Part shown: piece after piece, positions 4,776-64,000 of the stretch | Layout: every line of letters begins with the position of its first letter | Numbering within the stretch: position 1 is the first letter of the stretch | Assembly (NCBI GenBank): GCA_035771165.1 | Contig: JAWNZC010000444.1 | Span: 1,279,501-1,343,500, forward strand | Origin: Paragorgia papillata | Taxonomy: Eukaryota > Cnidaria > Anthozoa > Scleralcyonacea > Coralliidae | DNA length: 64,000 bases | Direction: 5' to 3' | Program-made: the position numbers and the translations under genes | Notes under the pieces: model-generated | What the model was told of the DNA's origin: nothing | The model's input: only the letters and a program-made list of their open reading frames with translations | Databases searched by the model: none

Positions 4776-4986
4776 AAGTTGTATTTTTTAAACATAGTTT
4801 GTTTTGCGTGCTGTAAATATGTAGTTTATATTTCTATTTTACGATAATTTTTATAAAATCTACGCAATTTAGTCTTTTAGGAGAGACGTCTGGGAAAGCC
4901 GTGCATGGAAGTGCTAAACATACTGTTGATTAACCCTTTCATGCGCATTGTTGTTGTGGAACAACTTTATCTTTTTACTCTGTCTA

Positions 4987-9272: not shown

Positions 9273-10570
9273 TCTCTAACAAACCTCGAGCAGTCTCAAC
9301 AAGAAAGATATCTTCCAAATCTATCAATGTTACCTGGAACGTTCCAGATCATCCTAATGGCATCATACTTCACTACCGTATTTCTTGGAAGCTATTGGAA
9401 GATGATAACAACAAAACGGTTGCAAGTGAATCTATTGTTGATGACAATGTATCGTCTATAGTTACGTCATACACTATAACGAATTTGGGTGAGTTATCAA
9501 AACATTTTCTAATTAAGGACTACTCTAATAGATTTTGTACATTAACGTGACTTTTTAACTATGTGCATTTTCATTCGTTGTTGACCGTGATCGTTTAAAC
9601 GACACACACATAGATGACGTCAAATCATATCAGGATACTGTACTTGTTTTTTCTATTTTTATCCCTGAAAAATTATTCAATAAACCAGTTGAATTTTTAT
9701 TGTATAAAACAAATAGATTACATTTTTCTGTGTTTGTGTGTGTGCGATTTTTTACCCGCTGTGACGTCATCCGTGATCTATTTCAGTACACACGGAAGAA
9801 AGTAATCTATTTGTTAAGTAAAAAATTTTAATACGAATTTACGTTGTTTATGTATATATTAATTTACGATATATATGTCCATTACATACCAGTTACATGG
9901 ATAAGAAACATGCATGGGTAACCAGCTTGAAAGCTTATGCTGCTCTGGTTGGCGCTCACTATCTTTACTACCATTCTTGTTATTTATATATTTTGCTTTA
10001 CTCTGTTGTTGTTTTTTTCTAATTATTTATTGTTAATTTTCTTAAGGCAGCGTAAATAGAATTGAATTGGATTGATAGGTTAAACAACTCGTGCACTCGC
10101 TGCTATTTCTCATTCTCCCAAGCTTTCACTCATGTTTTTGATGAATTTTCATAAATATTGCTTTTTTGCCAGATGGAGTTTCTTTTGTTTTCGTGTGACT
10201 TACATGTATAACATGGTACAGATTTTGTAATTAACCAATTGCACGTTCTGATACACAGTTATATGATATATATACAATATGAGCAGCCCACTGTATGGGT
10301 ATTTACGACGTGAGCCGAAAACAATGAGAAAATCGGTCAGAAAATTTATCTAACTCAGAACGAATTGATATCCGATTTACAACACTTGATTAAAAATGTA
10401 ATTTTTTTGAATTTTCATTATGAAATATTAATCAATTGAATATGTATAAATATTTTACTACTTTTTTCACTGTTTAGAACCATATCGTCTTTACAACATT
10501 AATGTTTCTGCGTTTACAAGCATCGGTGAAGGAGCACGTGCTGTTGTTCAGGAAAGGACTAATGAATCTG
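9273..10570 (+). CDS. FN3 module 2 (exons 9273-9488 and 10478-10570)
   Basis: First module of the tandem array. It differs from the consensus at N16K, D19N, S21T (SKSINVTW, adding an NVT sequon) and R65T. Three of these four changes recur in modules 35-37 at the other edge. The A-B intron is 989 bp, 9 bp longer than in the core. Confidence 0.9.
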
Positions 10571-10816
10571 GTTTGTGTGATAGTTTGTTAATGAGTTAAT
10601 AATAAATTAATTTGACAGAGAAAGAAGTTACTGTGCTGTAAACTAACGTATCTTGATCCTAGGAAACATGAAGATTTTTTATTCAGTTTCACTTTTTTTT
10701 CTTTTTAGTGTTTTTCTTTCTTGGCTAGGAATTTTTTCATTTTTGTAAAAAATATTGCTTAATAATATATAGGTTTACTATATCAACTAATAATTCTCTA
10801 TTATAATTTTTTTTAG

Positions 10817-12105
10817 TTTCTAACAAACCTCGAGCAGTCTCAACAAGAAAGATATCTTCCAACTCTATCGATGTTTCCTGGAACGTTCCAGATCACCCTA
10901 ATGGCATCATACTTCACTACCGTATTTCTTGGAAGCTATTGGAAGATGATAACAACAAAATGGTTGCAAGTGAATCTATTGTTGATGACAATGTATCGTC
11001 TATAGTTAGGTCATACACTATAACGAATTTGGGTGAGTTATCAAAACATTTTCTAATTAAAGACTACTCTAATAGATTTTGTACATTAACGTGACTTTTT
11101 CACTATGTGCATTTTCATTCGTTGTTGACCGTGATCTTTTAAAGGACACACACATAGATGACGTCAAATCACATCAGGATACTTGTTTTTTCTTTTTTTA
11201 TCCCTGAAAAATTATTCAATAAACCAGTTGAATTTTTATTGTATAAAACAAATAGATTACATTTTTCTGTGTTTGTGTGTGTGCGATTTTTTACCCGCTG
11301 TGACGTCATCCGTGATCTATTACAGTACACACGGAAGAAAGTAATCTATTTGTTAAATAAAAAATTTTAATACGAATTTACGTTGTTTATGTATATATTA
11401 ATTTACGATATATATGTCCATTACATACCAGTTATATGGATAGGAAACATGTGTAACCAGCTTGAAAGCTTATGCTGCTCTGGTTGGCGCTCACTATCTT
11501 TACTACCATTCTTGTTATTTATATATTTTGCTTTACTCTGTTGTTGTTTTTTTCTAATTATTCATTGTTAATTTTCTTAAGACAGTGTAAATAGAATTGA
11601 ATTGAATTGATAGGTTAAACAACTCGTGCACTCGCTGCTATTTCTCATTCTCCCAAGCTTTCACTCATGTTTTTGATGAATTTTCATAAATATTGCTTTT
11701 TTGCCAGATGGAGTTTCTTTTGTTTTCGTGTGACTTACATGTATAACATGGTACAGATTTTGTAATTAACCAATTGCACGTTCTGATACACAGTTATATG
11801 ATATATATACAATATGAGCAGCCCACTGTATGGGTATTTACGACGTGAGCCGAAAACAATGAGAAAATCGGTCAGAAAATTTATCTAACTCAGAACGAAT
11901 TGATATCCGATTTACAACACTTGATTAAAAATGTAATTTTTTTGAATTTTCATTATGAAATATTAATCAATTGAATATGTATAAATATTTTACTACTTTT
12001 TTCACTGTTTAGAACCATATCGTCTTTACAACATTAATGTTTCTGCGTTTACAAGCATCGGTGAAGGAGCACGTGCTGTTGTTCAGGAAAGGACTAATGA
12101 ATCTG
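10817..12105 (+). CDS. FN3 module 3 (exons 10817-11032 and 12013-12105)
   Basis: Core-type module with one coding difference, T49M, which removes the NKT sequon at 47. Introns of 980 and 246 bp are the array standard. Confidence 0.9.
11033..12012 (+). other. Array A-B intron, reference copy (980 bp)
   Basis: Representative of the long intron in every unit. It contains two TGACGTCA palindromes (11159-11166 and 11301-11308), a GT run (about 11273-11282), a GAATTGAATTGAATTG run (about 11594) and a final TTTTTTCACTGTTTAG acceptor. Short open frames of 62-70 codons repeat in every unit because the DNA repeats; they have no coding support. Confidence 0.8.
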
Positions 12106-12351
12106 GTTTGTGTGATAGTTTGTTAATGAGTTAATAATAAATTAATTTGACAGAGAAAGAAGTTACTGTGCTGTAAACTAACGTATCTTGATCCTAGGAA
12201 ACATGAAGATTTTTTATTCAGTTTCACTTTTTTTTCTTTTTAGTGTTTTTCTTTCTTGGCTAGGAATTTTTTCATTTTTGTAAAAAATATTGCTTAATAA
12301 TATATAGGTTTACTATATCAACTAATAATTCTCTATTATAATTTTTTTTAG
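12106..12351 (+). other. Array B-A intron, reference copy (246 bp)
   Basis: Short intron between modules: donor GTTTGTGTGA, then AT-rich sequence, then an acceptor with eight Ts before AG. No other element seen. Confidence 0.8.
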
Positions 12352-13640
12352 TTTCTAACAAACCTCGAGCAGTCTCAACAAGAAAGATATCTTCCAACTC
12401 TATCGATGTTTCCTGGAACGTTCCAGATCACCCTAATGGCATCATACTTCACTACCGTATTTCTTGGAAGCTATTGGAAGATGATAACAACAAAACGGTT
12501 GCAAGTGAATCTATTGTTGATGACAATGTATCGTCTATAGTTAGGTCATACACTATAACGAATTTGGGTGAGTTATCAAAACATTTTCTAATTAAAGACT
12601 ACTCTAATAGATTTTGTACATTAACGTGACTTTTTCACTATGTGCATTTTCATTCGTTGTTGACCGTGATCTTGTAAAGGACACACACATAGATGACGTC
12701 AAATCACATCAGGATACTTGTTTTTTCTTTTTTTATCCCTGAAAAATTATTCAATAAACCAGTTGAATTTTTATTGTATAAAACAAATAGATTACATTTT
12801 TCTGTGTTTGTGTGTGTGCGATTTTTTACCCGCTGTGACGTCATCCGTGATCTATTACAGTACACACGGAAGAAAGTAATCTATTTGTTAAATAAAAAAT
12901 TTTAATACGAATTTACGTTGTTTATGTATATATTAATTTACGATATATATGTCCATTACATACCAGTTATATGGATAGGAAACATGGGTAACCAGCTTGA
13001 AAGCTTATGCTGCTCTTGTTGGCGCTCACTATCTTTACTACCATTCTTGTTATTTATATATTTTGCTTTACTCTGTTGTTTTTTTTTTCTAATTATTCAT
13101 TGTTAATTTTCTTAAGACAGTGTAAATAGAATTGAATTGAATTGATAGGTTAAACAACTCGTGCACTCGCTGCTATTTCTCATTCTCCCAAGCTTTCACT
13201 CATGTTTTTGATGAATTTTCATAAATATTGCTTTTTTGCCAGATGGAGTTTCTTTTGTTTTCGTGTGACTTACATGTATAACATGGTACAGATTTTGTAA
13301 TTAACCAATTGCACGTTCTGATACACAGTTATATGATATATATACAATATGAGCAGCCCACTGTATGGGAATTTACAACGTGAGCCGAAAACAATGAGAA
13401 AATCGGTCAGAAAATTTATCTAACTCAGAACGAATTGATATCCGATTTACAACACTTGATTAAAAATGTAATTTTTTTGAATTTTCATTATGAAATATTA
13501 ATCAATTGAATATGTATAAATATTTTACTACTTTTTTCACTGTTTAGAACCATATCGTCTTTACAACATTAATGTTTCTGCGTTTACAAGCATCGGTGAA
13601 GGAGCACGTGCTGTTGTTCAGGAAAGGACTAATGAATCTG
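12352..13640 (+). CDS. FN3 module 4 (exons 12352-12567 and 13548-13640)
   Basis: Matches the consensus module at every residue I compared; both splice donors and acceptors are intact. Confidence 0.9.
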
Positions 13641-13886
13641 GTTTGTGTGATAGTTTGTTAATGAGTTAATAATAAATTAATTTGACAGAGAAAGAAGTTA
13701 CTGTGCTGTAAACTAACGTATCTTGATCCTAGGAAACATGAAGATTTTTTATTCAGTTTCACTTTTTTTTCTTTTTAGTGTTTTTCTTTCTTGGCTAGGA
13801 ATTTTTTCATTTTTGTAAAAAATATTGCTTAATAATATATAGGTTTACTATATCAACTAATAATTCTCTATTATAATTTTTTTTAG

Positions 13887-15175
13887 TTTCTAACAAACCT
13901 GGAGCAGTCTCAACAAGAAAGATATCTTCCAACTCTATCGATGTTTCCTGGAACGTTTCAGATCACCCTAATGGCATCATACTTCACTACCGTATTTCTT
14001 GGAAGCTATTGGAAGATGATAACAACAAAACGGTTGCAAGTGAATCTATTGTTGATGACAATGTATCGTCTATAGTTAGGTCATACACTATAACGAATTT
14101 GGGTGAGTTATCAAAACATTTTCTAATTAAAGACTACTCTAATAGATTTTGTACATTAACGTGACTTTTTCACTATGTGCATTTTCATTCGTTGTTGACC
14201 GTGATCTTTTAAAGGACACACACATAGATGACGTCAAATCACATCAGGATACTTGTTTTTTCTTTTTTTATCCCTGAAAAATTATTCAATAAACCAGTTG
14301 AATTTTTATTGTATAAAACAAATAGATTACATTTTTCTGTGTTTGTGTGTGTGCGATTTTTTACCCGCTGTGACGTCATCCGTGATCTATTACAGTACAC
14401 ACGGAAGAAAGTAATCTATTTGTTAAATAAAAAATTTTAATACGAATTTACGTTGTTTATGTATATATTAATTTACGATATATATGTCCATTACATACCA
14501 GTTATATGGATAAGAAACATGGGTAACCAGCTTGAAAGCTTATGCTGCTCTGGTTGGCGCTCACTATATTTACTACCATTCTTGTTATTTATATATTTTG
14601 CTTTACTCTGTTGTTGTTTTTTTCTAATTATTCATTGTTAATTTTCTTAAGACAGTGTAAATAGAATTGAATTGAATTGATAGGTTAAACAACTCGTGCA
14701 CTCGCTGCTATTTCTCATTCTCCCAAGCTTTCACTCATGTTTTTGATGAATTTTCATAAATATTGCTTTTTTGCCAGATGGAGTTTCTTTTGTTTTCGTG
14801 TGACTTACATGTATAACATGGTACCAATTTTGTAATTAACCAATTGCACGTTCTGATACACAGTTATATGATATATATACAATATGAGCAGCCCACTGTA
14901 TGGGTATTTACGACGTGAGCCGAAAACAATGAGAAAATCGGTCAGAAAATTTATCTAACTCAGAACGAATTGATATCCGATTTACAACACTTGATTAAAA
15001 ATGTAATTTTTTTGAATTTTCATTATGAAATATTAATCAATTGAATATGTATAAATATTTTACTACTTTTTTCACTGTTTAGAACCATATCGTCTTTACA
15101 ACATTAATGTTTCTGCGTTTACAAGCATCGGTGAAGGAGCACGTGCTGTTGTTCAGGAAAGGACTAATGAATCTG
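13887..15175 (+). CDS. FN3 module 5 (exons 13887-14102 and 15083-15175)
   Basis: Two substitutions in exon A: R6G near the N-terminal strand and P25S just after the conserved Trp strand. Exon B is consensus. Confidence 0.9.
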
Positions 15176-15421
15176 GTTTGTGTGATAGTTTGTTAATGAG
15201 TTAATAATAAATTAATTTGACAGAGAAAGAAGTTACTGTGCTGTAAACTAACGTATCTTGATCCTAGGAAACATGAAGATTTTTTATTCAGTTTCACTTT
15301 TTTTTCTTTTTAGTGTTTTTCTTTCTTGGCTAGGAATTTTTTCATTTTTGTAAAAAATATTGCTTAATAATATATAGGTTTACTATATCAACTAATAATT
15401 CTCTATTATAATTTTTTTTAG

Positions 15422-16710
15422 TTTCTAACAAACCTCGAGCAGTCTCAACAAGAAAGATATCTTCCAACTCTATCGATGTTTCCTGGAACGTTCCAGATCA
15501 CCCTAATGGCATCATACTTCACTACCGTATTTCTTGGAAGCTATTGGAAGATGATAACAACAAAACGGTTGCAAGTGAATCTATTGTTGATGACAATGTA
15601 TCGTCTATAGTTAGGTCATACACTATAACGAATTTGGGTGAGTTATCAAAACATTTTCTAATTAAAGACTACTCTAATAGATTTTGTACATTAACGTGAC
15701 TTTTTCACTATGTGCATTTTCATTCGTTGTTGACCGTGATCTTTTAAAGGACACACACATAGATGACGTCAAATCACATCAGGATACTTGTTTTTTCTTT
15801 TTTTATCCCTGAAAAATTATTCAATAAACCAGTTGAATTTTTATTGTATAAAACAAATAGATTACATTTTTCTGTGTTTGTGTGTGTGCGATTTTTTACC
15901 CGCTGTGACGTCATCCGTGATCTATTACAGTACACACGGAAGAAAGTAATCTATTTGTTAAATAAAAAATTTTAATACGAATTTACGTTGTTTATGTATA
16001 TATTAATTTACGATATATATGTCCATTACATACCAGTTATATGGATAGGAAACATGGGTAACCAGCTTGAAAGCTTATGCTGCTCTTGTTGGCGCTCACT
16101 ATCTTTACTACCATTCTTGTTATTTATATATTTTGCTTTACTCTGTTGTTGTTTTTTTCTAATTATTCATTGTTAATTTTCTTAAGACAGTGTAAATAGA
16201 ATTGAATTGAATTGATAGGTTAAACAACTCGTGCACTCGCTGCTATTTCTCATTCTCCCAAGCTTTCACTCATGTTTTTGATGAATTTTCATAAATATTG
16301 CTTTTTTGCCAGATGGAGTTTGTTTTGTTTTCGTGTGACTTACATGTATAACATGGTACAGATTTTGTAATTAACCAATTGCACGTTCTGATACACAGTT
16401 ATATGATATATATACAATATGAGCAGCCCACTGTATGGGTATTTACGACGTGAGCCGAAAACAATGAGAAAATCGGTCAGAAAATTTATCTAACTCAGAA
16501 CGAATTGATATCCGATTTACAACACTTGATTAAAAATGTAATTTTTTTGAATTTTCATTATGAAATATTAATCAATTGAATATGTATAAATATTTTACTA
16601 CTTTTTTCACTGTTTAGAACCATATCGTCTTTACAACATTAATGTTTCTGCCTTTACAAGCATCGGTGAAGGAGCACGTGCTGTTGTTCAGGAAAGGACT
16701 AATGAATCTG
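15422..16710 (+). CDS. FN3 module 6 (exons 15422-15637 and 16618-16710)
   Basis: Consensus protein; exon B carries a silent change (GCG to GCC at Ala84). Confidence 0.9.
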
Positions 16711-16957
16711 GTTTGTGTGATAGTTTGTTAATGAGTTAATAATAAATTAATTTGACAGAGAAAGAAGTTACTGTGCTGTAAACTAACGTATCTTTATCCT
16801 AGGAAACATGAAGATTTTTTATTCAGTTTCACTTTTTTTTCTTTTTAGTGTTTTTCTTTCTTGGCTAGGAATTTTTTCATTTTTGTAAAAAATATTGCTT
16901 AATAATATATAGGTTTACTATATCAACTAATAATTCTCTATTATAATTTTTTTTTAG

Positions 16958-18248
16958 TTTCTAACAAACCTCGAGCAGTCTCAACAAGAAAGATATCTTC
17001 CAACTCTATCGATGTTTCCTGGAACGTTCCAGATCACCCTAATGGCATCATACTTCACTACCGTATTTCTTGGAAGCTATTGGAAGATGATAACAACAAA
17101 ACGGTTGCAAGTGAATCTATTGTTGATGACAATGTATCGTCTATAGTTAGGTCATACACTATAACGAATTTGGGTGAGTTATCAAAACATTTTCTAATTA
17201 AAGACTACTCTAATAGATTTTGTACATTAACGTGACTTTTTCACTATGTGCATTTTCATTCGTTGTTGACCGTGATCTTTTAAAGGACACACACATAGAT
17301 GACGTCAAATCACATCAGGATACTTGTTTTTTCTTTTTTTATCCCTGAAAAATTATTCAATAAACCAGTTGAATTTTTATTGTATAAAACAAATAGATTA
17401 CATTTTTCTGTGTTTGTGTGTGTGTGCGATTTTTTACCCGCTGTGACGTCATCCGTGATCTATTACAGTACACACGGAAGAAAGTAATCTATTTGTTAAA
17501 TAAAAAATTTTAATACGAATTTACGTTGTTTATGTATATATTAATTTACGATATATATGTCCATTACATACCAGTTATATGGATAGGAAACATGGGTAAC
17601 CAGCTTGAAAGCTTATGCTGCTCTTGTTGGCGCTCGCTATCTTTACTACCATTCTTGTTATTTATATATTTTGCTTTACTCTGTTGTTGTTTTTTTCTAA
17701 TTATTCATTGTTAATTTTCTTAAGACAGTGTAAATAGAATTGAATTGAATTGATAGGTTAAACAACTCGTGCACTCGCTGCTATTTCTCATTCTCCCAAG
17801 CTTTCACTCATGTTTTTGATGAATTTTCATAAATATTGCTTTTTTGCCAGATGGAGTTTCTTTTGTTTTCGTGTGACTTACATGTATAACATGGTACAGA
17901 TTTTGTAATTAACCAATTGCACGTTCTGATACACAGTTATATGATATATATACAATATGAGCAGCCCACTGTATGGGTATTTACGACGTGAGCCGAAAAC
18001 AATGAGAAAATCGGTCAGAAAATTTATCTAACTCAGAACGAATTGATATCCGATTTACAACACTTGATTAAAAATGTAATTTTTTTGAATTTTCATTATG
18101 AAATATTAATCAATTGAATATGTATAAATATTTTACTACTTTTTTCACTGTTTAGAACCATATCGTCTTTACAACATTAATGTTTCTGCGTTTACAAGCA
18201 TCGGTGAAGGAGCACGTGCTGTTGTTCAGGAAAGGACTAATGAATCTG
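16958..18248 (+). CDS. FN3 module 7 (exons 16958-17173 and 18156-18248)
   Basis: Consensus protein. The acceptor T tract before exon A has one extra T, and the GT run in the A-B intron is one repeat longer than usual. Confidence 0.9.
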
Positions 18249-18494
18249 GTTTGTGTGATAGTTTGTTAATGAGTTAATAATAAATTAATTTGACAGAGAA
18301 AGAAGTTACTGTGCTGTAAACTAACGTATCTTTATCCTAGGAAACATGAAGATTTTTTATTCAGTTTCACTTTTTTTTCTTTTTAGTGTTTTTCTTTCTT
18401 GGCTAGGAATTTTTTCATTTTTGTAAAAAATATTGCTTAATAATATATAGGTTTACTATATCAACTAATAATTCTCTATTATAATTTTTTTTAG

Positions 18495-19783
18495 TTTCTA
18501 ACAAACCTCGAGCAGTCTCAACAAGAAAGATATCTTCCAACTCTATCGATGTTTCCTGGAACGTTCCAGATCACCCTAATGGCATCATACTTCACTACCG
18601 TATTTCTTGGAAGCTATTGGAAGATGATAACAACAAAACGGTTGCAAGTGAATCTATTGTTGATGACAATGTATCGTCTATAGTTAGGTCATACACTATA
18701 ACGAATTTGGGTGAGTTATCAAAACATTTTCTAATTAAAGACTACTCTAATAGATTTTGTACATTAACGTGACTTTTTCACTATGTGCATTTTCATTCGT
18801 TGTTGACCGTGATCTTTTAAAGGACACACACATAGATGACGTCAAATCACATCAGGATACTTGTTTTTTCTTTTTTTATCCCTGAAAAATTATTCAATAA
18901 ACCAGTTGAATTTTTATTGTATAAAACAAATAGATTACATTTTTCTGTGTTTGTGTGTGTGCGATTTTTTACCCGCTGTGACGTCATCCGTGATCTATTA
19001 CAGTACACACGGAAGAAAGTAATCTATTTGTTAAATAAAAAATTTTAATACGAATTTACGTTGTTTATGTATATATTAATTTACGATATATATGTCCATT
19101 ACATACCAGTTATATGGATAGGAAACATGGGTAACCAGCTTGAAAGCTTATGCTGCTCTTGTTGGCGCTCACTATCTTTACTACCATTCTTGTTATTTAT
19201 ATATTTTGCTTTACTCTGTTGTTGTTTTTTTCTAATTATTCATTGTTAATTTTCTTAAGACAGTGTCAATAGAATTGAATTGAATTGATAGGTTAAACAA
19301 CTCGTGCACTCGCTGCTATTTCTCATTCTCCCAAGCTTTCACTCATGTTTTTGATGAATTTTCATAAATATTGCTTTTTTGCCAGATGGAGTTTCTTTTG
19401 TTTTCGTGTGACTTACATGTATAACATGGTACAGATTTTGTAATTAACCAATTGCACGTTCTGATACACAGTTATATGATATATATACAATATGAGCAGC
19501 CCACTGTATGGGTATTTACGACGTGAGCCGAAAACAATGAGAAAATCGGTCAGAAAATTTATCTAACTCAGAACGAATTGATATCCGATTTACAACACTT
19601 GATTAAAAATGTAATTTTTTTGAATTTTCATTATGAAATATTAATCAATTGAATATGTATAAATATTTTACTACTTTTTTCACTGTTTAGAACCATATCG
19701 TCTTTACAACATTAATGTTTCTGCGTTTACAAGCATCGGTGAAGGAGCACGTGCTGTTGTTCAGGAAAGGACTAATGAATCTG
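18495..19783 (+). CDS. FN3 module 8 (exons 18495-18710 and 19691-19783)
   Basis: Consensus protein. The A-B intron carries the GTGTCAATAG variant also seen after modules 10, 14 and 15. Confidence 0.9.
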
Positions 19784-20029
19784 GTTTGTGTGATAGTTTG
19801 TTAATGAGTTAATAATAAATTAATTTGACAGAGAAAGAAGTTACTGTGCTGTAAACTAACGTATCTTTATCCTAGGAAACATGAAGATTTTTTATTCAGT
19901 TTCACTTTTTTTTCTTTTTAGTGTTTTTCTTTCTTGGGTAGGAATTTTTTCATTTTTGTAAAAAATATTGCTTAATAATATATAGGTTTACTATATCAAC
20001 TAATAATTCTCTATTATAATTTTTTTTAG

Positions 20030-21322
20030 TTTCTAACAAACCTCGAGCAGTCTCAACAAGAAAGATATCTTCCAACTCTATCGATGTTTCCTGGAACGTT
20101 CCAGATCACCCTAATGGCATCATACTTCACTACCGTATTTCTTGGAAGCTATTGGAAGATGATAACAACAAAACGGTTGCAAGTGAATCTATTGTTGATG
20201 ACAATGTATCGTCTATAGTTAGGTCATACACTATAACGAATTTGGGTGAGTTATCAAAACATTTTCTAATTAAAGACTACTCTAATAGATTTTGTACATT
20301 AACGTGACTTTTTCACTATGTGCATTTTCATTCGTTGTTGACCGTGATCTTTTAAAGGACACACACATAGATGACGTCAAATCACATCAGGATACTTGTT
20401 TTTTCTTTTTTTATCCCTGAAAAATTATTCAATAAACCAGTTGAATTTTTATTGTATAAAACAAATAGATTACATTTTTCTGTGTTTGTGTGTGTGTGTG
20501 CGATTTTTTACCCGCTGTGACGTCATCCGTGATCTATTACAGTACACACGGAAGAAAGTAATCTATTTGTTAAATAAAAAATTTTAATACGAATTTACGT
20601 TGTTTATGTATATATTAATTTACGATATATATGTCCATTACATACCAGTTATATGGATAGGAAACATGGGTAACCAGCTTGAAAGCTTATGCTGCTCTTG
20701 TTGGCGCTCACTATCTTTACTACCATTCTTGTTATTTATATATTTTGCTTTACTCTGTTGTTGTTTTTTTCTAATTATTCATTGTTAATTTTCTTAAGAC
20801 AGTGTAAATAGAATTGAATTGAATTGATAGGTTAAACAACTCGTGCACTCGCTGCTATTTCTCATTCTCCCAAGCTTTCACTCATGTTTTTGATGAATTT
20901 TCATAAATATTGCTTTTTTGCCAGATGGAGTTTCTTTTGTTTTCGTGTGACTTACATGTATAACATGGTACAGATTTTGTAATTAACCAATTGCACGTTC
21001 TGATACACAGTTATATGATATATATACAATATGAGCAGCCCACTGTATGGGTATTTACGACGTGAGCCGAAAACAATGAGAAAATCGGTCAGAAAATTTA
21101 TCTAACTCAGAACGAATTGATATCCGATTTACAACACTTGATTAAAAATGTAATTTTTTTGAATTTTCATTATGAAATATTAATCAATTGAATATGTATA
21201 AATATTTTACTACTTTTTTCACTGTTTAGAACCATATCGTCTTTACAACATTAATGTTTCTGCGTTTACAAGCATCGGTGAAGGAGCACGTGCTGTTGTT
21301 CAGGAAAGGACTAATGAATCTG
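20030..21322 (+). CDS. FN3 module 9 (exons 20030-20245 and 21230-21322)
   Basis: Consensus protein. The intronic GT run is two repeats longer than the standard, a state shared with module 14. Confidence 0.9.
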
Positions 21323-52310: not shown

Positions 52311-53599
52311 TTTCTAACAAACCTCGAGCAGTCTCAACAAGAAAGATATCTTCCAACTCTATCGATGTTTCCTGGAACGTTCCAGATCACCCTAATGGCA
52401 TCATACTTCACTACCGTATTTCTTGGAAGCTATTGGAAGATGATAACAACAAAACGGTTGCAAGTGAATCTATTGTTGATGACAATGTATCGTCTATAGT
52501 TAGGTCATACACTATAACGAATTTGGGTGAGTTATCAAAACATTTTCTAATTAAAGACTACTCTAATAGATTTTGTACATTAACGTGACTTTTTCACTAT
52601 GTGCATTTTCATTCGTTGTTGACCGTGATCTTTTAAAGGACACACACATAGATGACGTCAAATCACATCAGGATACTTGTTTTTTCTTTTTTTATCCCTG
52701 AAAAATTATTCAATAAACCAGTTGAATTTTTATTGTATAAAACAAATAGATTACATTTTTCTGTGTTTGTATGTGTGCGATTTTTTACCCGCTGTGACGT
52801 CATCCGTGATCTATTACAGTACACACGGAAGAAAGTAATCTATTTGTTAAATAAAAAATTTTAATACGAATTTACGTTGTTTATGTATATATTAATTTAC
52901 GATATATATGTCCATTACATACCAGTTATATGGATAGGAAACATGGGTAACCAGCTTGAAAGCTTATGCTGCTCTTGTTGGCGCTCACTATCTTTACTAC
53001 CATTCTTGTTATTTATATATTTTGCTTTACTCTGTTGTTGTTTTTTTCTAATTATTCATTGTTAATTTTCTTAAGACAGTGTAAATAGAATTGAATTGAA
53101 TTGATAGGTTAAACAACTCGTGCACTCGCTGCTATTTCTCATTCTCCCAAGCTTTCACTCATGTTTTTGATGAATTTTCATAAATATTGCTTTTTTGCCA
53201 GATGGAGTTTCTTTTGTTTTCGTGTGACTTACATGTATAACATGGTACAGATTTTGTAATTAACCAATTGCACGTTCTGATACACAGTTATATGATATAT
53301 ATACAATATGAGCAGCCCACTGTATGGGTATTTACGACGTGAGCCGAAAACAATGAGAAAATCGGTCAGAAAATTTATCTAACTCAGAACGAATTGATAT
53401 CCGATTTACAACACTTGATTAAAAATGTAATTTTTTTGAATTTTCATTATGAAATATTAATCAATTGAATATGTATAAATATTTTACTACTTTTTTCACT
53501 GTTTAGAACCATATCGTGTTTACAACATTAATGTTTCTGCGTTTACAAGCATCGGTGAAGGAGCACGTGCTGTTGTTCAGGAAAGGACTAATGAATCTG
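52311..53599 (+). CDS. FN3 module 30 (exons 52311-52526 and 53507-53599)
   Basis: Exon A consensus; exon B L77V (TATCGTGTTTAC). Confidence 0.9.
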
Positions 53600-53845
53600 G
53601 TTTGTGTGATAGTTTGTTAATGAGTTAATAATAAATTAATTTGACAGAGAAAGAAGTTTCTGTGCTGTAAACTAACGTATCTTGATCCTAGGAAACATGA
53701 AGATTTTTTATTCAGTTTCACTTTTTTTTCTTTTTAGTGTTTTTCTTTCTTGGCTAGGAATTTTTTCATTTTTGTAAAAAATATTGCTTAATAATATATA
53801 GGTTTACTATATCAACTAATAATTCTCTATTATAATTTTTTTTAG

Positions 53846-55135
53846 TTTCTAACAAACCTCGAGCAGTCTCAACAAGAAAGATATCTTCCAACTCTATCGA
53901 TGTTTCCTGGAACGTTCCAGATCACCCTAATGGCATCATACTTCACTACCGTCTTTCTTGGAAGCTATTGGAAGATGATAACAACAAAACGGTTGCAAGT
54001 GAATCTATTGTTGATGACAATGTATCGTCTATTGTTAGGTCATACACTATAACGAATTTGGGTGAGTTATCAAAACATTTTCTAATTAAAGACTACTCTA
54101 ATAGATTTTGTACATTAACGTGACTTTTTCACTATGTGCATTTTCATTCGTTGTTGACCGTGATCTTTTAAAGGACACACACATAGATGACGTCAAATCA
54201 CATCAGGATACTTGTTTTTTCTTTTTTTTATCCCTGAAAAATTATTCAATAAACCAGTTGAATTTTTATTGTATAAAACAAATAGATTACATTTTTCTGT
54301 GTTTGTATGTGTGCGATTTTTTACCCGCTGTGACGTCATCCGTGATCTATTACAGTACACACGGAAGAAAGTAATCTATTTGTTAAATAAAAAATTTTAA
54401 TACGAATTTACGTTGTTTATGTATATATTAATTTACGATATATATGTCCATTACATACCAGTTATATGGATAGGAAACATGGGTAACCAGCTTGAAAGCT
54501 TATGCTGCTCTTGTTGGCGCTCACTATCTTTACTACCATTCTTGTTATTTATATATTTTGCTTTACTCTGTTGTTGTTTTTTTCTAATTATTCATTGTTA
54601 ATTTTCTTAAGACAGTGTAAATAGAATTGAATTGAATTGATAGGTTAAACAACTCGTGCACTCGCTGCTATTTCTCATTCTCCCAAGCTTTCACTCATGT
54701 TTTTGATGAATTTTCATAAATATTGCTTTTTTGCCAGATGGAGTTTCTTTTGTTTTCGTGTGACTTACATGTATAACATGGTACAGATTTTGTAATTAAC
54801 CAATTGCACGTTCTGATACACAGTTATATGATATATATACAATATGAGCAGCCCACTGTATGGGTATTTACGACGTGAGCCGAAAACAATGAGAAAATCG
54901 CTCAGAAAATTTATCTAACTCAGAACGAATTGATATCCGATTTACAACACTTGATTAAAAATGTAATTTTTTTGAATTTTCATTATGAAATATTAATCAA
55001 TTGAATATGTATAAATATTTTACTACTTTTTTCACTGTTTAGAACCATATCGTCTTTACAACATTAATGTTTCTGCGTTTACAAGCATCGGTGAAGGAGC
55101 ACGTGCTGTTGTTCAGGAAAGGACTAATGAATCTG
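53846..55135 (+). CDS. FN3 module 31 (exons 53846-54061 and 55043-55135)
   Basis: I37L in exon A, shared with modules 18, 19 and 32; a silent change at Ile63. Exon B consensus. Confidence 0.9.
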
Positions 55136-55381
55136 GTTTGTGTGATAGTTTGTTAATGAGTTAATAATAAATTAATTTGACAGAGAAAGAAGTTACTGTG
55201 CTGTAAACTAACGTATCTTGATCCTAGGAAACATGAAGATTTTTTATTCAGTTTCACTTTTTTTTCTTTTTAGTGTTTTTCTTTCTTGGCTAGGAATTTT
55301 TTCATTTTTGTAAAAAATATTGCTTAATAATATATAGGTTTACTATATCAACTAATAATTCTCTATTATAATTTTTTTTAG

Positions 55382-56679
55382 TTTCTAACAAACCTCGAGC
55401 AGTCTCAACAAGAAAGATATCTTCCAACTCTATCGATGTTTCCTGGAACGTTCCAGATCACCCTAATGGCATCATACTTCACTACCGTCTTTCTTGGAAG
55501 CTATTGGAAGATGATAACAACAAAACGGTTGCAAGTGAATCTATTGTTGATGACAATGTATCGTCTATAGTTAGGTCATACACTATAACGAATTTGGGTG
55601 AGTTATCAAAACATTTTCTAATTAAAGACTACTCTAATAGATTTTGTACGTTAACGTGACTTTTTCACTATGTGCATTTTCATTCGTTGTTGACCGTGAT
55701 CTTTTAAAGGACACACACATAGATGACGTCAAATCACATCAGGATACTTGTCTTTTCTTTTTTTATCCCTGAAAAATTATTCAATAAACCAGTTGAATTT
55801 TTATTGTATAAAACAAATAGATTACATTTTTCTGTGTTTGTGTGTGTGCGATTTTTTACCCGCTGTGACGTCATCCGTGATCTATTACAGTACACACGGA
55901 AGAAAGTAATCTATTTATTAAATAAAAAATTTTAATACGAATTTACGTTGTTTATGTATATATTAATTTACGATATACAGTATATGTCCATTACATACCA
56001 GTTACATATATAAGAAACATGCATGGGTAACCAGCTTGAAAGCTTATGCTGCTCTGGTTGGCGCTCACTTTGTTTACTACCATTCTTGTTATTTATATAT
56101 TTTGCTTTACTCTGTTGTTGTTTTTTTCTAATTATTCATTGTTAATTTTCTTAAGACAGTGTAAATAGAATTGAATTGAATTGATAGGTTAAACAACTCG
56201 TGCACTCGCTGCTATTTCTCATTCTCCCAAGCTTTCACTCATGTTTTTGATGAATTTTCATAAATATTGCTTTTTTGCCAGATGGAGTTTCTTTTGTTTT
56301 CGTGTGACTTACATGTATAACATGGTACAGATTTTGTAATTAACCAATTGCACGTTCTGATTCACATTTATATGATATATATACAATATGAGCAGCCCAC
56401 TGTATGGGTATTTACGACGTGAGCCGAAAACAATGAGAAAATCGGTCAGAAAATTTATCTAACTCAGAACGAATTGATATCCGATTTACAACACTTGATT
56501 AAAAATGTAATTTTTTTGAATTTTCATTATGAAATATTAATCAATTGAATATGTATAAATATTTTACTACTTTTTTCACTGTTTAGAACCATATCGTCTT
56601 TACAACATTAATGTTTCTGCGTTTACAAGCATCGGTGAAGGAGCACGTGCTGTTGTTCAGGAAAGGACTAATGAATCTG
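55382..56679 (+). CDS. FN3 module 32 (exons 55382-55597 and 56587-56679)
   Basis: I37L in exon A. The A-B intron is longer (989 bp) and has the CAGTTACATA...GCATGGGT variant also found after modules 18, 19 and 34. Confidence 0.9.
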
Positions 56680-56925
56680 GTTTGTGTGATAGTTTGTTAA
56701 TGAGTTAATAATAAATTAATTTGACAGAGAAAGAAGTTACTGTGCTGTAAACTAACGTATCTTGATCCTAGGAAACATGAAGATTTTTTATTCAGTTTCA
56801 CTTTTTTTTCTTTTTAGTGTTTTTCTTTCTTGGCTAGGAATTTTTTCATTTTTGTAAAAAATATTGCTTAATAATATATAGGTTTACTATATCAACTAAT
56901 AATTCTCTATTATAATTTTTTTTAG

Positions 56926-58214
56926 TTTCTAACAAACCTCGAGCAGTCTCAACAAGAAAGATATCTTCCAACTCTATCGATGTTTCCTGGAACGTTCCAG
57001 ATCACCCTAATGGCATCATACTTCACTACCGTATTTCTTGGAAGCTATTGGAAGATGATAACAACAAAACGGTTGCAAGTGAATCTATTGTTGATGACAA
57101 TGTATCGTCTATAGTTAGGTCATACACTATAACGAATTTGGGTGAGTTATCAAAACATTTTCTAATTAAAGACTACTCTAATAGATTTTGTACATTAACG
57201 TGACTTTTTCACTATGTGCATTTTCATTCGTTGTTGACCGTGATCTTTTAAAGGACACACACATAGATGACGTCAAATCACATCAGGATACTTGTTTTTT
57301 CTGTTTTTATCCCTGAAAAATTATTCAATAAACCAGTTGAATTTTTATTGTATAAAACAAATAGATTACATTTTTCTGTGTTTGTGTGTGTGCGATTTTT
57401 TACCCGCTGTGACGTCATCCGTGATCTATTACAGTACACACGGAAGAAAGTAATCTATTTGTTAAATAAAAAATTTTAATACGAATTTACGTTGTTTATG
57501 TATATATTAATTTACGATATATATGTCCTTTACATACCAGTTATATGGATAGGAAACATGTGTAACCAGCTTGAAAGCTTATGCTGCTCTTGTTGGCGCT
57601 CACTATCTTTACTACCATTCTTGTTATTTATATATTTTGCTTTACTCTGTTGTTGTTTTTTTCTAATTATTCATTGTTAATTTTCTTAAGACAGTGTAAA
57701 TAGAATTGAATTGAATTGATAGGTTAAACAACTCGTGCACTCGCTGCTATTTCTCATTCTCCCAAGCTTTCACTCATGTTTTTGATGAATTTTCATAAAT
57801 ATTGCTTTTTTGCCAGATGGAGTTTCTTTTGTTTTCGTGTGACTTACATGTATAACATGGTACAGATTTTGTAATTAACCAATTGCACGTTCTGATACAC
57901 AGTTATATGATATATATACAATATGAGCAGCCCACTGTATGGGTATTTACGACGTGAGCCGAAAACAATGAGAAAATCGCTCAGAAAATTTATCTAACTC
58001 AGAACGAATTGATATCCGATTTACAACACTTGATTAAAAATGTAATTTTTTTGAATTTTCATTATGAAATATTAATCAATTGAATATGTATAAATATTTT
58101 ACTACTTTTTTCACTGTTTAGAACCATATCGTCTTTACAACATTAATGTTTCTGCGTTTACAAGCATCGGTGAAGGAGCACGTGCTGTTGTTCAGGAAAG
58201 GACTAATGAATCTG
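56926..58214 (+). CDS. FN3 module 33 (exons 56926-57141 and 58122-58214)
   Basis: Consensus protein; introns of the module 26/27 type although about 9 kb away. Confidence 0.9.
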
Positions 58215-58460
58215 GTTTGTGTGATAGTTTGTTAATGAGTTAATAATAAATTAATTTGACAGAGAAAGAAGTTACTGTGCTGTAAACTAACGTATCTTGA
58301 TCCTAGGAAACATGAAGATTTTTTATTCAGTTTCACTTTTTTTTCTTTTTAGTGTTTTTCTTTCTTGGCTAGGAATTTTTTCATTTTTGTAAAAAATATT
58401 GCTTAATAATATATAGGTTTACTATATCAACTAATAATTCTCTATTATAATTTTTTTTAG

Positions 58461-59728
58461 TTTCTAACAAACCTCGAGCAGTCTCAACAAGAAAGATATC
58501 TTCCAACTCTATCGATGTTTCCTGGAACGTTCCAGATCACCCTAATGGCATCATACTTCACTACCGTATTTCTTGGAAGCTATTGGAAGATGATAACAAC
58601 AAAACGGTTGCAAGTGAATCTATTGTTGATGACAATGTATCGTCTATAGTTAGGTCATACACTATAACGAATTTGGGTGAGTTATCAAAACATTTTCTAA
58701 TTAAAGACTACTCTAATAGATTTTGTACATTAACGTGACTTTTTCACTATGTGCATTTTCATTCGTTGTTGACCGTGATCTTTTAAAGGACACACACATA
58801 GATGACGTCAAATCACATCAGGATACTTGTTTTTTCTGTTTTTATCCCTGAAAAATTATTCAATAAACCAGTTGAATTTTTATTGTATAAAACAAATAGA
58901 TTACATTTTTCTGTGTTTGTGTGTGTGCGATTTTTTACCCGCTGTGACGTCATCCGTGATCTATTACAGTATACACGGAGGAAAGTAATCTATTTGTTAA
59001 ATAAAAAATTTTAATACGAATTTACGTTGTTTATGTATATTAATTTACGATATATATGTCCATTACATACCAGTTACATAGATAAGAAACATGCATGGGT
59101 AACCAGCTTGAAAGCTTATGCTGCTCTTGTTGGCGCTAACTATCTTTACTACCATTCTTGTTATTTATATATTTTACTTTACTCTGTTGTTGTTTTTTTC
59201 TAATTATTTATTGTTAATTTTCTTAAGACAGTGTAAATAGAATTGAATTGAATTGATAGGTTAAACAACTCGTGCACTCGGTGCTATTTATTATTCTCCC
59301 AAGCTTTCACTCATGTTTTTGATGAATTTTCATAAATATTGCTTTTTTGCCAGATGGAGTTTCTTTTATTTTCGTGTAACATACATGTATAACATCATGG
59401 TACAGATTTTGTAATTAACCAATTGCACGTTCTAATACGAGCAGCCCACTGTATGGGTATTTACAACGCGAGCCGAAAACAATGAGAAAATCGGTCAGAA
59501 AATTTATCTAACTCAGAACGAATTGATATCCGATTTACAACACTTGATTAAAAATTTAATTTTTTTGAATTTTCATTATGAAATATTAATGAATTGGATA
59601 TGTATAAATATTTTACTTCTTTTTTCACTGTTTAGAACCATATCGTCTTTACAACATTAATGTTTCTGCGTTTACAAGCATCGGTGAAGGAGCACGTGCT
59701 GTTGTTCAAGAAAGGACTAATGAATCTG
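58461..59728 (+). CDS. FN3 module 34 (exons 58461-58676 and 59636-59728)
   Basis: Consensus protein in a transitional unit. Exon A is core-like, but the intron is about 21 bp shorter and exon B has the silent CAA of the diverged right-edge copies. Confidence 0.9.
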
Positions 59729-59974: not shown

Positions 59975-61257
59975 TTTCTAACAAACCTCAAGCAGTCTCA
60001 ACAAGAAAGATATCTTCCAAATCTATCAATGTTACCTGGAACGTTCCAGATCACCCTAATGGCATCATACTTCACTACCGTATTTCTTGGAAGATATTGG
60101 AAGACGATAACAACAGACCTGTTGCAAATGAATCTATCGTTGATGAGAATGTATTGTCTACACTTAGGTCATACCCTATAACGAATTTGGGTGAGTTATA
60201 AAAAATTTTCTAATTAAAGACTACTCTAATAGATTTTGTACATTAACGTGAATTTTTAACTACGTGCATTTTCATTCGTTGTTGACCGTGATCTTTTAAA
60301 GGACACACACATAGATGACGTCAAATCACATCAGAATACTTGTTTTTTCTATTTTTATCCCTGAAAAATTATTCAATAAACCAGAATTTTTATTGTATAA
60401 AACAAATAGATTACATTTTTCTGTGTTTGTGTGTGTGCGATTTTTTACCCGCTGTGACGTCATCCGTGATCCATTACAGTACACACGGAAGAAAGTAATC
60501 TATTTGTTAAATAAAAAATTTTAATACGAATTTACGTTGTTTATGTATATTAATTTACGATATATATGTCTATTACATACCAGTTACATGGATAAGAAAC
60601 ATGGGTAACCAGCTTGAAAGCTTATGCTGCTCTTGTTGGCGCTCACTATCTTTACTACCATTCTTGTTATTTATATATTTTGCTTTACTCTGTTGTTGTT
60701 TTTTTCTAATTATTTATTGTTAATTTTTTTAAGACAGTGTAAATAGAATTGAATTGAATAGATAGGTTAAACAACTCGCGCACTCGCTGCTATTTCTCAT
60801 TTTCCCAAGCTTTCACTCATGTTTTTGATGAATTTTCATAAACATTGCTTTTTTGCCAGATGGAGTTTCTTTTATTTTCGTGTGACATACATGTATAACA
60901 TGGTACAGATTTTGTAATTAACCAATTGCACGTTCTAATACACAGTTATATTATATATATACAATATGAGCAGCCCACTGTATGGGTATTTACAACGCGA
61001 GCCGAAAACAATGAGAAAATCGGTCAGAAAATTTATCTAACTCCGAACGAATTGATATCCGATTTACAACACTTAATTAAAAATTTAATTTTTTTGAATT
61101 TTCATTATGAAATATTAATGAATTGGATATGTATAAATATTTTACTTATTTTTTCACTGTTTAGAACCATATCGTCTTTACAACATTAATGTTTCTGCGT
61201 TTACAAGCATCGGTGAAGGAGCACGTGCTGTTGTTCAAGAAAGGACTAATGAATCTG
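59975..61257 (+). CDS. FN3 module 35 (exons 59975-60190 and 61165-61257)
   Basis: Diverged edge module: R6Q, N16K, D19N, S21T, L41I, K48R, T49P, S52N, D58E, S61L, I63T, V64L and T68P. Sequons at 47 and 59 are lost while new ones appear at 19 (NVT) and 52 (NES). Exon B protein is consensus. Confidence 0.9.
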
Positions 61258-61505
61258 GTTTGTGTGATAGGTTGTTAATGAGTTAATAATAAATTAATTT
61301 GACGGAGAAAGAAGTTACTGTGCTGTAAACTAGCGTATCGTGATGCTAGGAAACATGAAGATTTTTTATACAGTTTGACGGTTTTTTCTTTTTAGTGTTT
61401 TTCTTTCTTGGCTAGGAATTTTTTCATTTTTGTAAAAAATATTGCTTAATAATATATAGGTTTACTATATCAACTAATAGTTCTATATTATAATTTTTTT
61501 TTTAG

Positions 61506-62789
61506 TTTCTAACAAACCTCAAGCAGTCTCAACAAGAAAGATATCTTCCAAATCTATCAATGTTACCTGGAACGTTCCAGATCACCCTAATGGCATCATA
61601 ATTCACTACCGTATTTCTTGGAAGCTATTGGAAGACGATAACAACAGACCTGTTGCAAATGAATCTATGGTTGATGAGAATGTATTGTCTACACTTAGGT
61701 CATACACTATAACGAATTTGCGTGAGTTATAAAAACATTTTCTAATTAAAGACTACTCTAATAGATTTTGTACATTAACGTGAATTTTTAACTACGTGCA
61801 TTTTCATTCGTTGTTGACCGTGATCTTTTAAAGGACACACACATAGATGACGTCAAATCACATCAGAATACTTGTTTTTTCTATTTTTATCCCTGAAAAA
61901 TTATTCAATAAACCAGAATTTTTATTGTATAAAACAAATAGATTACATTTTTCTGTGTTTGTGTGTGTGCGATTTTTTACCCGCTGTGACGTCATCCGTG
62001 ATCCATTACAGTACACACGGAAGAAAGTAATCTATTTGTTAAATAAAAAATTTTAATACGAATTTACGTTGTTTATGTATATTAATTTACGATATATATG
62101 TCTATTACATACCAGTTACATGGATAAGAAACATGGGTAACCAGCTTGAAAGCTTATGCTCCTCTTGTTGGCGCTCACTATCTTTACTACCATTCTTGTT
62201 ATTTATATATTTTGCTTTACTCTGTTGTTGTTTTTTTCTAATTATTTATTGTTAATTTTTTTAAGACAGTGTAAATAGAATTGAATTGAATAGATAGGTT
62301 AAACAACTCGTGCACTCGCTGCTATTTCTCATTTTCCCAAGCTTTCACTCATGTTTTTGATGAATTTTCATAAAAATTGCTTTTTTGCCAGATGGAGTTT
62401 CTTTTATTTTCGTGTGACATACATGTATAACATGGTACAGATTTTGTAATTAACCAATTGCACGTTCTAATACACAGTTATATTATATATATACAATATG
62501 AGCAGCCCACTGTATGGGTATTTACAACGCGAGCCGAAAACAATGAGAAAATCGGTCAGAAAATTTATCTAACTCAGAACGAATTGATATCCGATTTACA
62601 ACACTTGATTAAAAATTTAATTTTTTTGAATTTTCATTATGAAATATTAATGAATTGGATATGTATAAATATTTTACTTATTTTTTCACTGTTTAGAACC
62701 ATATCGTCTTTACAACATTAATGTTTCTGCGTTTACAAGCATCGGTGAAGGAGCACGTGCTGTTGTTCAAGAAAGGACTAATGAATCTG
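61506..62789 (+). CDS. FN3 module 36 (exons 61506-61721 and 62697-62789)
   Basis: As module 35 but with L33I and I55M, and without L41I and T68P. The last base of exon A is C instead of G (C|GTGAGT), giving Gln for Glu at 73 and a weaker donor context. Exon B consensus. Confidence 0.88.
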
Positions 62790-63036
62790 GTTTGTGTGAT
62801 AGGTTGTTAATGAGTTAATAATAAATTAATTTGACGGAGAAAGAAGTTACTGTGCTGTAAACTAGCGTATCGTGATGCTAGGAAACATGAAGATTTTTTA
62901 TACGGTTTGACGGTTTTTTCTTTTTAGTGTTTTTCTTTCTTGGCTAGGAATTTTTTCATTTTTGTAAAAAATATTGCTTAATAATATATAGGTTTACTAT
63001 ATCAACTAATAGTTCTGTATTATAATTTTTTTTTAG

Positions 63037-63252
63037 TTTCTAACAAACCTCAAGCAGTCTCAACAAGAAAGATATCTTCCAAATCTATCAATGTTACCTG
63101 GAACGTTCCAGATCACCCTAATGGCATCATAATTCACTACCGTATTTCTTGGAAGCTATTGGAAGACGATAACAACAGACCTGTTGCAAATGAATCTATG
63201 GTTGATGAGAATGTATTGTCTACACTTAGGTCATACACTATAACGAATTTGG
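63037..63252 (+). CDS. FN3 module 37, exon A only (cut by window end)
   Basis: Same protein type as module 36, with the normal G|GTGAGT donor. Its exon B would lie about 980 bp downstream, beyond position 64000. Confidence 0.88.
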
Positions 63253-64000
63253 GTGAGTTATAAAAACATTTTCTAATTAAAGACTACTCTAATAGATTTT
63301 GTACATTAACGTTACTTTTTAACTACGTGCATTTTCATTCGTTGTTGACCGTGATCTTTTAAAGGACACACACATAGATGACGTCAAATCACATCAGAAT
63401 ACTTGTTTTTTCTATTTTTATCCCTGAAAAATTATTCAATAAACCAGAATTTTTATTGTATAAAACAAATAGATTACATTTTTCTGTGTTTGTGTGTGTG
63501 CGATTTTTTGCCCGCTGTGACGTCATCCGTGATCCATTACAGTACACACGGAAGAAAGTAATCTATTTGTTAAATAAAAAATTTTAATACGAATTTACGT
63601 TGTTTATGTATATTAATTTACGATATATATGTCCATTACATACCAGTTACATGGATAAGAAACATGGGTAACCAGCTTGAAAGCTTATGCTGCTCTGGTT
63701 GGCGCTCACTATCTTTACTACCATTCTTGTTATTTATATATTTTGCTTTACTCTGTTGTTGTTTTTTTCTAATTATTTATTGTTAATTTTTTTAAGACAG
63801 TGTAAATAGAATTGAATTGAATAGATAGGTTAAACAACTCGTGCACTCGCTGCTATTTCTCATTTTCCCAAGCTTTCACTCATGTTTTTGATGAATTTTC
63901 ATAAAAATTGCTTTTTTGCCAGATGGAGTTTCTTTTATTTTCGTGTGACATACATGTATAACATGGAACAGATTTTGTAATTAACCAATTGCACGTTCTA

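What the first reader, a model, noticed from the sequence alone, without database searches (positions are those of the whole stretch)
9273..64000. Giant tandem array of identical two-exon FN3 units building one protein
At least 36 consecutive exon A copies, each 216 bp, alternate with 93-bp exon B copies. Each pair makes one 103-residue FN3 module. Most modules in the core are identical in protein sequence, which is extreme for FN3 repeats, normally strongly divergent within a protein. This points to recent expansion of a repetitive extracellular protein with a possibly variable module number.
Basis: partly seen in the sequence, partly recalled or inferred. Interest (0 to 1): 0.8.

Follow-up and report, generated by a model that had tools for sequence, protein, structure and literature searches.

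The report
Giant receptor built of repeated modules
The stretch is part of what looks like one very large animal cell-surface receptor gene, probably of an octocoral, whose outer part is a long chain of almost identical protein modules that were copied head to tail recently.

Summary
Confirmed and extended. The window holds 37 exon-A and 36 exon-B copies. The array starts at 5948 (U0), earlier than stated, and runs past the window to W118865: 61 modules. Units are about 1.53 kb; introns are as alike as exons (core median identity 99.15%). Module introns are phase 1, so units and single exons can come and go in frame. Beyond the window the exon chain continues into four Ig, an FN3-like, SEA-like, EGF, Ig, SEA-like and FN3 domains, a membrane helix and a short tail: a predicted type I receptor of roughly 7,300 residues. 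Its membrane-side part matches an octocoral (Dendronephthya gigantea) family whose members carry a kinase; none was found near this gene. Head to head lies a sister gene with the same sub-arrays in other copy numbers, ending in two tyrosine-phosphatase domains. Best reading: an octocoral receptor whose array evolves by unequal exchange, a kind known from LPA KIV-2. Four window modules are frame-broken by one-base insertions that cluster mid-array, so the exact count is uncertain. Function (adhesion or recognition) is inferred.

The parts
5948..6166 (+). U0 exon A (219 bp), first, divergent module of the array
   Evidence: Pfam fn3 1.8e-13 for the whole module
8942..9034 (+). U0 exon B (93 bp), after a 2,775-bp intron
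9273..59728 (+). Core units U1-U33: exon A (216 bp) and exon B (93 bp) alternating; unit 1514-1544 bp
   Evidence: median whole-unit identity of U2-U33 99.15%
59975..64000 (+). Start of second sub-array (type A2): U34, U35 and exon A of U36; 15 A2 modules in all, to W83064
10817..11032 (+). Example exon A (U2)
12013..12105 (+). Example exon B (U2)
33520..33613 (+). U16 exon B with one extra base in a T run (frame-broken as assembled)
33860..34076 (+). U17 exon A with one extra base (frame-broken as assembled)
35399..35616 (+). U18 exon A with two extra bases, one of them shared with U17
44630..44846 (+). U24 exon A with one extra base in an A run
9708..9815 (.). First of 36 copies (one per unit U1-U36, 108-112 bp) of an element with 14-bp inverted ends in intron 1
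   Evidence: up to 2 mismatches allowed per end
4125..6310 (.). Piece of the inverted duplication shared with the sister gene (W-24989 to -27177), 96.9% identical
6944..9300 (.). Piece of the inverted duplication shared with the sister gene (W-27176 to -29514), 97.7% identical

Best explanation
The array is most of the ectodomain of one giant type I transmembrane receptor gene of an octocoral-like anthozoan: signal peptide, 61 FN3 modules, four Ig, FN3-like, SEA-like, EGF, Ig, SEA-like, FN3, membrane helix, short tyrosine-bearing tail. Each module is a two-exon unit with phase-1 introns, so unequal exchange or gene conversion between units adds, removes and homogenises modules without breaking the frame. 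The product would be a long rod of changeable length on the cell surface, used for adhesion or recognition. A mirrored sister gene carries the same kinds of module on a receptor with two tyrosine-phosphatase domains, so the two probably bind the same or related partners, or each other, with different signalling outcomes. Shown by sequence: array, exon order, phases, homogeneity, sub-types, sister gene, most domain assignments. Inferred: a single transcript, the first exon, the SEA identity, the membrane topology, the function, and variation between individuals.
For: 61 modules in unbroken A/B order, 56 of them open; module introns and the exons of Ig1-Ig4 and the FN3-like domain are all phase 1 with AG..GT. 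Pfam: fn3, I-set x4, EGF, fn3 above cut-off; two SEA matches below cut-off. P0113 of D. gigantea aligns exon by exon over the C-terminal part. Homogeneity of introns and exons and sharing of rare variants at lags 1-2 (0.84 per pair, permutation p=0.0015) point to exchange in steps of one or two units. Sister arrays differ in copy number with the same sub-type order. Modules are far more alike within this genome than to D. gigantea modules. The TM and tail exons recur in another copy on the contig (L035).
Against: No transcript. 5 of 61 modules are frame-broken as assembled, and one frameshift is shared by U17 and U18. The FN3-like exon at W124574 gives no Pfam fn3 match and rests on the P0113 alignment. 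The first exon is picked from 8 relaxed candidates and lies 12.3 kb upstream. The tail is ambiguous. No kinase, although the closest relatives have one.
Confidence: 0.72

Rival explanations
1. The array is real, but its length here is an assembly product: mid-array units were misjoined, collapsed or falsely duplicated, so 61 (and 33 core) is not the true number.
For: Of 29 private insertions listed for core units (five more divergent units left out), 27 fall in U15-U25 and 24 lengthen a run of one base; U17 and U18 share 12 minor variants including a frameshift; near-identical 1.5-kb units over 50 kb are hard to place.
Against: Units differ by shared and private substitutions, neighbours are more alike than shuffled ones, sub-types lie in blocks, and the sister array has the same order of blocks.
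Confidence: 0.35
2. The locus serves self/non-self or gamete recognition, with module number and exon-A type as the variable part.
For: Copy number differs between sister arrays. Core against A2 consensus: exon A 13 nonsynonymous changes in 165 sites, exon B 0 in 70 (Fisher p=0.012), intron 1 about 31 in 974 (p=0.008). Clustered receptor copies with different ends. Precedents: paired receptors at the Botryllus fuhc locus (PMC12065747, passages); homogenised repeats in the rotifer mate recognition protein (PMC3495898, passages).
Against: Exon A nonsynonymous against synonymous is not significant (p=0.53), and the sister-core comparison is at intron level (p=1.0). Uneven gene conversion along the unit could give the same contrast. 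No population, expression or binding data.
Confidence: 0.12
3. The array is a decaying duplicate: an inverted copy of the sister gene's 5' part that is no longer made as protein.
For: Frame-broken modules; no mirrored copy of the sister's signal exon in the plus arm; arms 95-98% identical in the long pieces.
Against: 56 of 61 modules open; an alternative signal-like first exon joins U0 in frame; the downstream exon chain is intact and conserved with D. gigantea; exon B is almost unchanged between sub-types.
Confidence: 0.07
4. The exons make a secreted matrix protein (fibronectin- or tenascin-like spacer), and the membrane exons belong to another gene.
For: Long runs of FN3 are typical of matrix proteins (general knowledge).
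Against: The exons after the last module are in phase and match the order of one protein, P0113, from FN3 array to membrane helix.
Confidence: 0.05

Closest known systems
Human LPA kringle IV type 2 repeat (PMC6314250, passages seen)
   Same: One protein domain per tandem genomic unit, two exons per unit, many nearly identical copies inside one gene; there 1 to more than 40 copies per allele.
   Different: Kringle, not FN3; 5.6-kb unit with exons of 160 and 182 bp; a plasma protein. Allelic variation is established there and untested here.
Dendronephthya gigantea titin-like P0113 and relatives P0232, P0245
   Same: FN3 array (P0113; 15 fn3 stretches by Pfam), then Ig, FN3, SEA, EGF, Ig, SEA, FN3 and a membrane helix in the same order; 40-48% identity over the reported coverage.
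   Different: All three end in a kinase domain, which was not found here; the P0113 modules are only 30-36% identical to the ones here; P0232 and P0245 have other N-terminal parts.
Tenascin-X (PMC1578592, passages and a reference title seen)
   Same: Concerted evolution of FN3 exons and introns is on record for the mammalian gene.
   Different: Matrix protein with a C-terminal fibrinogen-like domain (recalled); here no such domain in the exons scanned and a membrane helix instead.
Rotifer mate recognition protein gene mmr-b (PMC3495898, passages seen)
   Same: Nearly identical tandem repeats within a gene, homogenised by concerted evolution, repeat number varying between copies.
   Different: 2-9 short repeats, an unrelated protein; its role in mate recognition is tested, none is here.
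Receptor tyrosine phosphatases with FN3 ectodomains (LAR, PTPRQ type)
   Same: Nearest solved sequence of the module is from receptor-type phosphatase F, and the sister gene ends in two phosphatase domains.
   Different: The window gene itself has no phosphatase exon in the flank read to W164000.

Membership tests
FN3 domain (PF00041) | Match above Pfam's curated cut-off | tested here: met
   62.1, 57.1 and 50.9 bits for the three modules scanned, cut-off 25
Coding macro-repeat of the LPA KIV-2 kind | Tandem genomic unit holding two exons that together encode one domain | tested here: met
Coding macro-repeat of the LPA KIV-2 kind | Many nearly identical copies, introns included | tested here: met
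   core median 99.15%
Coding macro-repeat of the LPA KIV-2 kind | Copy number differs between alleles | not testable with these tools
   One assembly; only the sister array in the same genome differs
D. gigantea stalk receptor family (P0113, P0232, P0245) | FN3-SEA-EGF-Ig-SEA-FN3-membrane helix order | tested here: met
   SEA pieces below Pfam cut-off and the first FN3 by alignment only
D. gigantea stalk receptor family (P0113, P0232, P0245) | Kinase domain after the membrane helix | tested here: not met
   No tblastn match in the flank to W164000; among the 106 listed genome matches only a weak one on C444, at 0.99 Mb (137 of 384 candidates scored)
Receptor tyrosine phosphatase | Intracellular phosphatase domain (window gene) | tested here: not met
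   P0090 finds phosphatase exons only on the minus strand, in the sister gene
Receptor tyrosine phosphatase | Intracellular phosphatase domain (sister gene) | tested here: met
   Y_phosphatase 1.3e-85 and 1.8e-64
Tenascin | C-terminal fibrinogen-like domain (recalled) | tested here: not met
   None in the C-terminal exons scanned; the EGF-bearing piece has one EGF only
Allorecognition receptor | Polymorphism that predicts fusion or rejection | not testable with these tools
   No population or colony data

The most novel reading that the evidence does not exclude
This is an octocoral self/non-self recognition locus: mirrored receptors share a concertedly evolving FN3 rod whose module number and exon-A type act as a variable identity tag, read out through different signalling ends (two phosphatase domains on the sister, a short tyrosine tail here, a kinase in relatives), on a constant membrane-side stalk to which different N-terminal arrays have been attached.
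Probability: 0.12. Interest if true: 0.9.

Novelty: new variant of a known kind. Interest (0 to 1): 0.56.

Why it matters
A two-exon repeat with symmetric phase-1 exons is a clean natural case of a surface receptor whose length can change by unequal exchange without frame cost, and two sister arrays in one genome give an internal comparison of how such arrays diverge. If array length differs between colonies, the gene would be a concrete candidate for colony or gamete recognition in octocorals. The listed rows of my searches for a described octocoral allorecognition gene or FN3-array receptor (10 to 20 rows each out of larger totals) showed no paper on one; most subscription journals are not in that library.

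Tried and rejected
Tandem Repeats Finder (period limit 500) does not report the array. Rfam gave nothing at gathering thresholds. A first protein search with 10 joined modules returned 110 proteins at 22-34% identity and did not name the species. A haplotype fold was considered and rejected: similarity of the two arms stops after the FN3 part, apart from scattered pieces of 69 to 550 bp, and the two genes have different ends. A kinase end was expected from P0113 and not found. Strong positive selection on exon A was considered and is not claimed: significant against exon B and intron 1, not against exon A synonymous changes, and not in the sister comparison. High ratios within A2 (2.10) and within the sister's core (1.73) rest on few changes. 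The sister-core intron-1 diversity printed (0.296) comes from ungapped comparison of shifted introns and was dropped; the aligned value is 0.016. The intron values use only units of equal length (14 and 26 of the core units). Module 58 was first flagged as broken because my script took a wrong donor; it is open. The raw count of 64 plus-strand A hits includes split and spurious hits; 61 is the curated number. The self-comparison printed no internal repeats, so nothing is concluded from it. The D. gigantea set has 12 pieces, one an Ig piece and one a divergent first module, and misses modules that my split rule did not cut; its 55% mean is therefore only rough. Sister modules 18 and 26 were left out of the amino-acid comparison, as were the frame-broken modules and module 58. 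A genome search with the sister's second phosphatase domain did not complete and was dropped. VERL was seen in a search listing only and is not used.
Full report
The observation. A search with one exon A and one exon B copy finds 37 A and 36 B copies on the + strand of the window, alternating throughout. Exons are 216 and 93 bp (U0 exon A 219 as set by hand); the check found no exception to AG..GT. Both introns of a unit are phase 1, so unit, exon A and exon B are each symmetric and can be added or skipped in frame. The module is FN3 (62.1 bits, cut-off 25); the nearest solved sequence is from receptor-type tyrosine phosphatase F. The core module has four N-x-S/T sites and no cysteine. 17 of the 36 complete modules are identical in protein. 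Core units U2-U33 have a median identity of 99.15% over the whole unit, and exon diversity (0.0051) is close to intron diversity (0.0057 and 0.0081, equal-length units only). So the likeness comes from recent copying or homogenisation, not only from selection on the protein. Units U1-U36 each carry a 108-112 bp element with 14-bp inverted ends in intron 1 (36 pairs in the window), a passenger of the unit.

Where it ends. The genome is held (617.9 Mb, 473 contigs; the window is C444:1279501-1343500). W below means window coordinates continued outside. Flanks fetched show the array running to W118865 with sub-arrays: U0, 33 core, 15 A2, 8 type 3 (the last intermediate), 2 transitional and 2 type-4 modules, 61 in all, about 6,283 codons. 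56 of 61 modules are open; the five broken ones are 16, 17, 18, 24 and 45. In 16, 17, 18 and 24 the breaks are one-base insertions next to the same base; in 45 one base is missing. Of 29 private insertions listed for core units (five more divergent units left out), 24 lengthen a run and 27 lie in U15-U25. That suits a weak consensus in mid-array. Against it, U17 and U18 share one frameshift among 12 shared minor variants: either a truly broken exon was duplicated or a noisy stretch was. The exact number of units is therefore uncertain; the existence of a long array is not in doubt. Rare variants are shared by units one or two places apart more than in shuffled orders (mean 0.84 per pair, permutation p=0.0015; beyond lag 12 the mean is 0.24), the footprint of exchange in steps of one or two units; the U17/U18 pair contributes much of this.

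What gene it is. After the last module, exons of the same phase follow: four Ig (I-set 1.2e-62, 4 stretches) and an FN3-like exon, which Pfam does not call but which aligns to P0113. Then come a SEA-like domain, an EGF (above cut-off), an Ig (not scanned with Pfam; by tblastn to Ig proteins and P0113), a second SEA-like domain, an FN3 (41.1 bits), a membrane helix and a tail (read by eye). Both SEA pieces score below Pfam's cut-off (21.5 and 19.2 against 26.4), and a small exon inside each is probably missing from my model. The membrane exon either runs into a stop soon after the helix (with one S-x-Y-x-x-L motif; the motif class is recalled) or splices to make an 80-residue tail with six tyrosines. 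Similar helix and tail exons occur in a further copy on the contig (L035). A candidate first exon with a signal-like sequence lies at W-6351 and joins U0 in frame; it is one of 8 relaxed hits and is an inference. Together this predicts a type I receptor of roughly 7,300 residues.

Relatives. In the protein searches, the hits that carry the membrane-side order are from the octocoral Dendronephthya gigantea: P0113 (40% identity, 76% coverage), P0232 (48%, 93%) and P0245 (45%, 98%) (taxonomy). Scored candidates were capped, one search listed 120 of 463, and candidates were limited by length in all three searches, so absence elsewhere is not shown. The three have different N-terminal parts by their precomputed Pfam lists (accession meanings recalled) and end in a kinase domain. 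I take the window's organism to be an octocoral or near one; that is inferred from these hits alone. In this genome the stalk occurs at the window gene, in further copies on C444 (1.525-1.540 Mb, 74-98% by piece) and on C406 (51-64%), where weak kinase-like matches follow (C406:3481478-3484371). No kinase was found in the window gene's flank to W164000, and the only C444 match is a weak one at 0.99 Mb (106 matches listed, 137 of 384 candidates scored). It is therefore not filed as a kinase receptor.

The sister gene. On the minus strand, head to head, 27 A exons and 26 paired B exons (a 27th is read by eye) show the same sub-types in the same order: U0, 9 core-like, 7 type 3 (the last intermediate), 2 transitional, 8 type 4. 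The 25 modules taken whole are open. The A2 block has no counterpart there. Long non-array pieces of the two arms are 95.2-97.7% identical. The similarity stops after the FN3 part, apart from scattered short pieces; the sister goes on to other FN3-like exons, a membrane helix (read by eye) and two Y_phosphatase domains. This argues against a haplotype fold. A signal-like first exon lies at W-17166 (one of 4 hits). The best 150 scored genome matches of the core module (of 325 candidates) all lie on C444 between 1.165 and 1.512 Mb.

Evolution. Modules of a sub-array are alike (core 98.9%, A2 97.2% aa), cores of the two genes 94.5%, core to A2 86.5%; all groups are 30-36% to the D. gigantea pieces, which average 55% among themselves (12 pieces, two of them unlike the rest). 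This fits homogenisation within lineages. Between core and A2 consensus, exon A has 13 nonsynonymous and 2 synonymous changes, exon B 0 and 1. Exon A nonsynonymous change exceeds exon B (p=0.012) and intron 1 (p=0.008) but not exon A synonymous change (p=0.53), and the sister comparison is at intron level (p=1.0). Pairwise dN/dS is 0.89 within core, 1.28 core to A2, 1.38 between sister cores and 0.31-0.57 between older types; for type 3 and type 4 between the sisters it is 0.61 and 0.39. Relaxed or mildly diversifying selection on exon A is possible, not shown.

How it most likely works. Shown: a frame-neutral, homogenised module array in a gene with predicted receptor domains, and a mirrored phosphatase gene with the same modules. 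Inferred: one transcript; a long extracellular rod (FN3 size of 3-3.5 nm per module is recalled); adhesion or ligand recognition, perhaps with the sister receptor meeting the same partner; variation in number among individuals.

What is known. The closest precedent in kind is LPA KIV-2, a 5.6-kb unit with two exons in 1 to more than 40 copies (PMC6314250, passages). Concerted evolution of FN3 exons and introns is on record for tenascin-X (PMC1578592, passages and a reference title), and of repeats in a recognition protein for rotifer mmr-b (PMC3495898, passages). Tandem gene duplication is pervasive in two stony corals (PMC10236652, passages). Botryllus has paired receptors at an allorecognition locus (PMC12065747, passages). 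So the kind is known; the size, the octocoral receptor setting and the mirrored sister with another signalling end are the new features as far as the listed rows show.

Noticed in passing
222-1072: ORFs that recur inverted near W-23.8 to -23.1 kb; one piece has a weak GIY-YIG match below cut-off (17.9 bits, cut-off 22.6). Looks like a Penelope-type retroelement remnant (recalled).
   Followed up: no
7900-8576: Fold-back: this piece of U0's long intron matches its counterpart arm in both orientations (83.8% over 691 bp).
   Followed up: no
L012:7562-9163 and L012:9325 to L013:578 (+); L013:6463-8153 (-): Reverse-transcriptase-like ORFs (recognised by eye only) inside introns of the older, downstream modules.
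   Followed up: no
C444:1524835-1539512 and L035: Two more copies of the membrane-side stalk downstream, and an FN3 module match (63%) at C444:1512147: a receptor cluster, not a single gene.
   Followed up: partly
P0113, P0232, P0245: The kinase domains of these D. gigantea relatives read NFG where DFG is usual (motif recalled; sequences), so they may be weak or dead kinases.
   Followed up: no
8001-64000: The array is AT-rich (GC 0.29-0.31) with a steady AT skew, against GC 0.36-0.39 in 1-8000.
   Followed up: no
4070-4163: Short imperfect tandem repeat upstream of U0.
   Followed up: no
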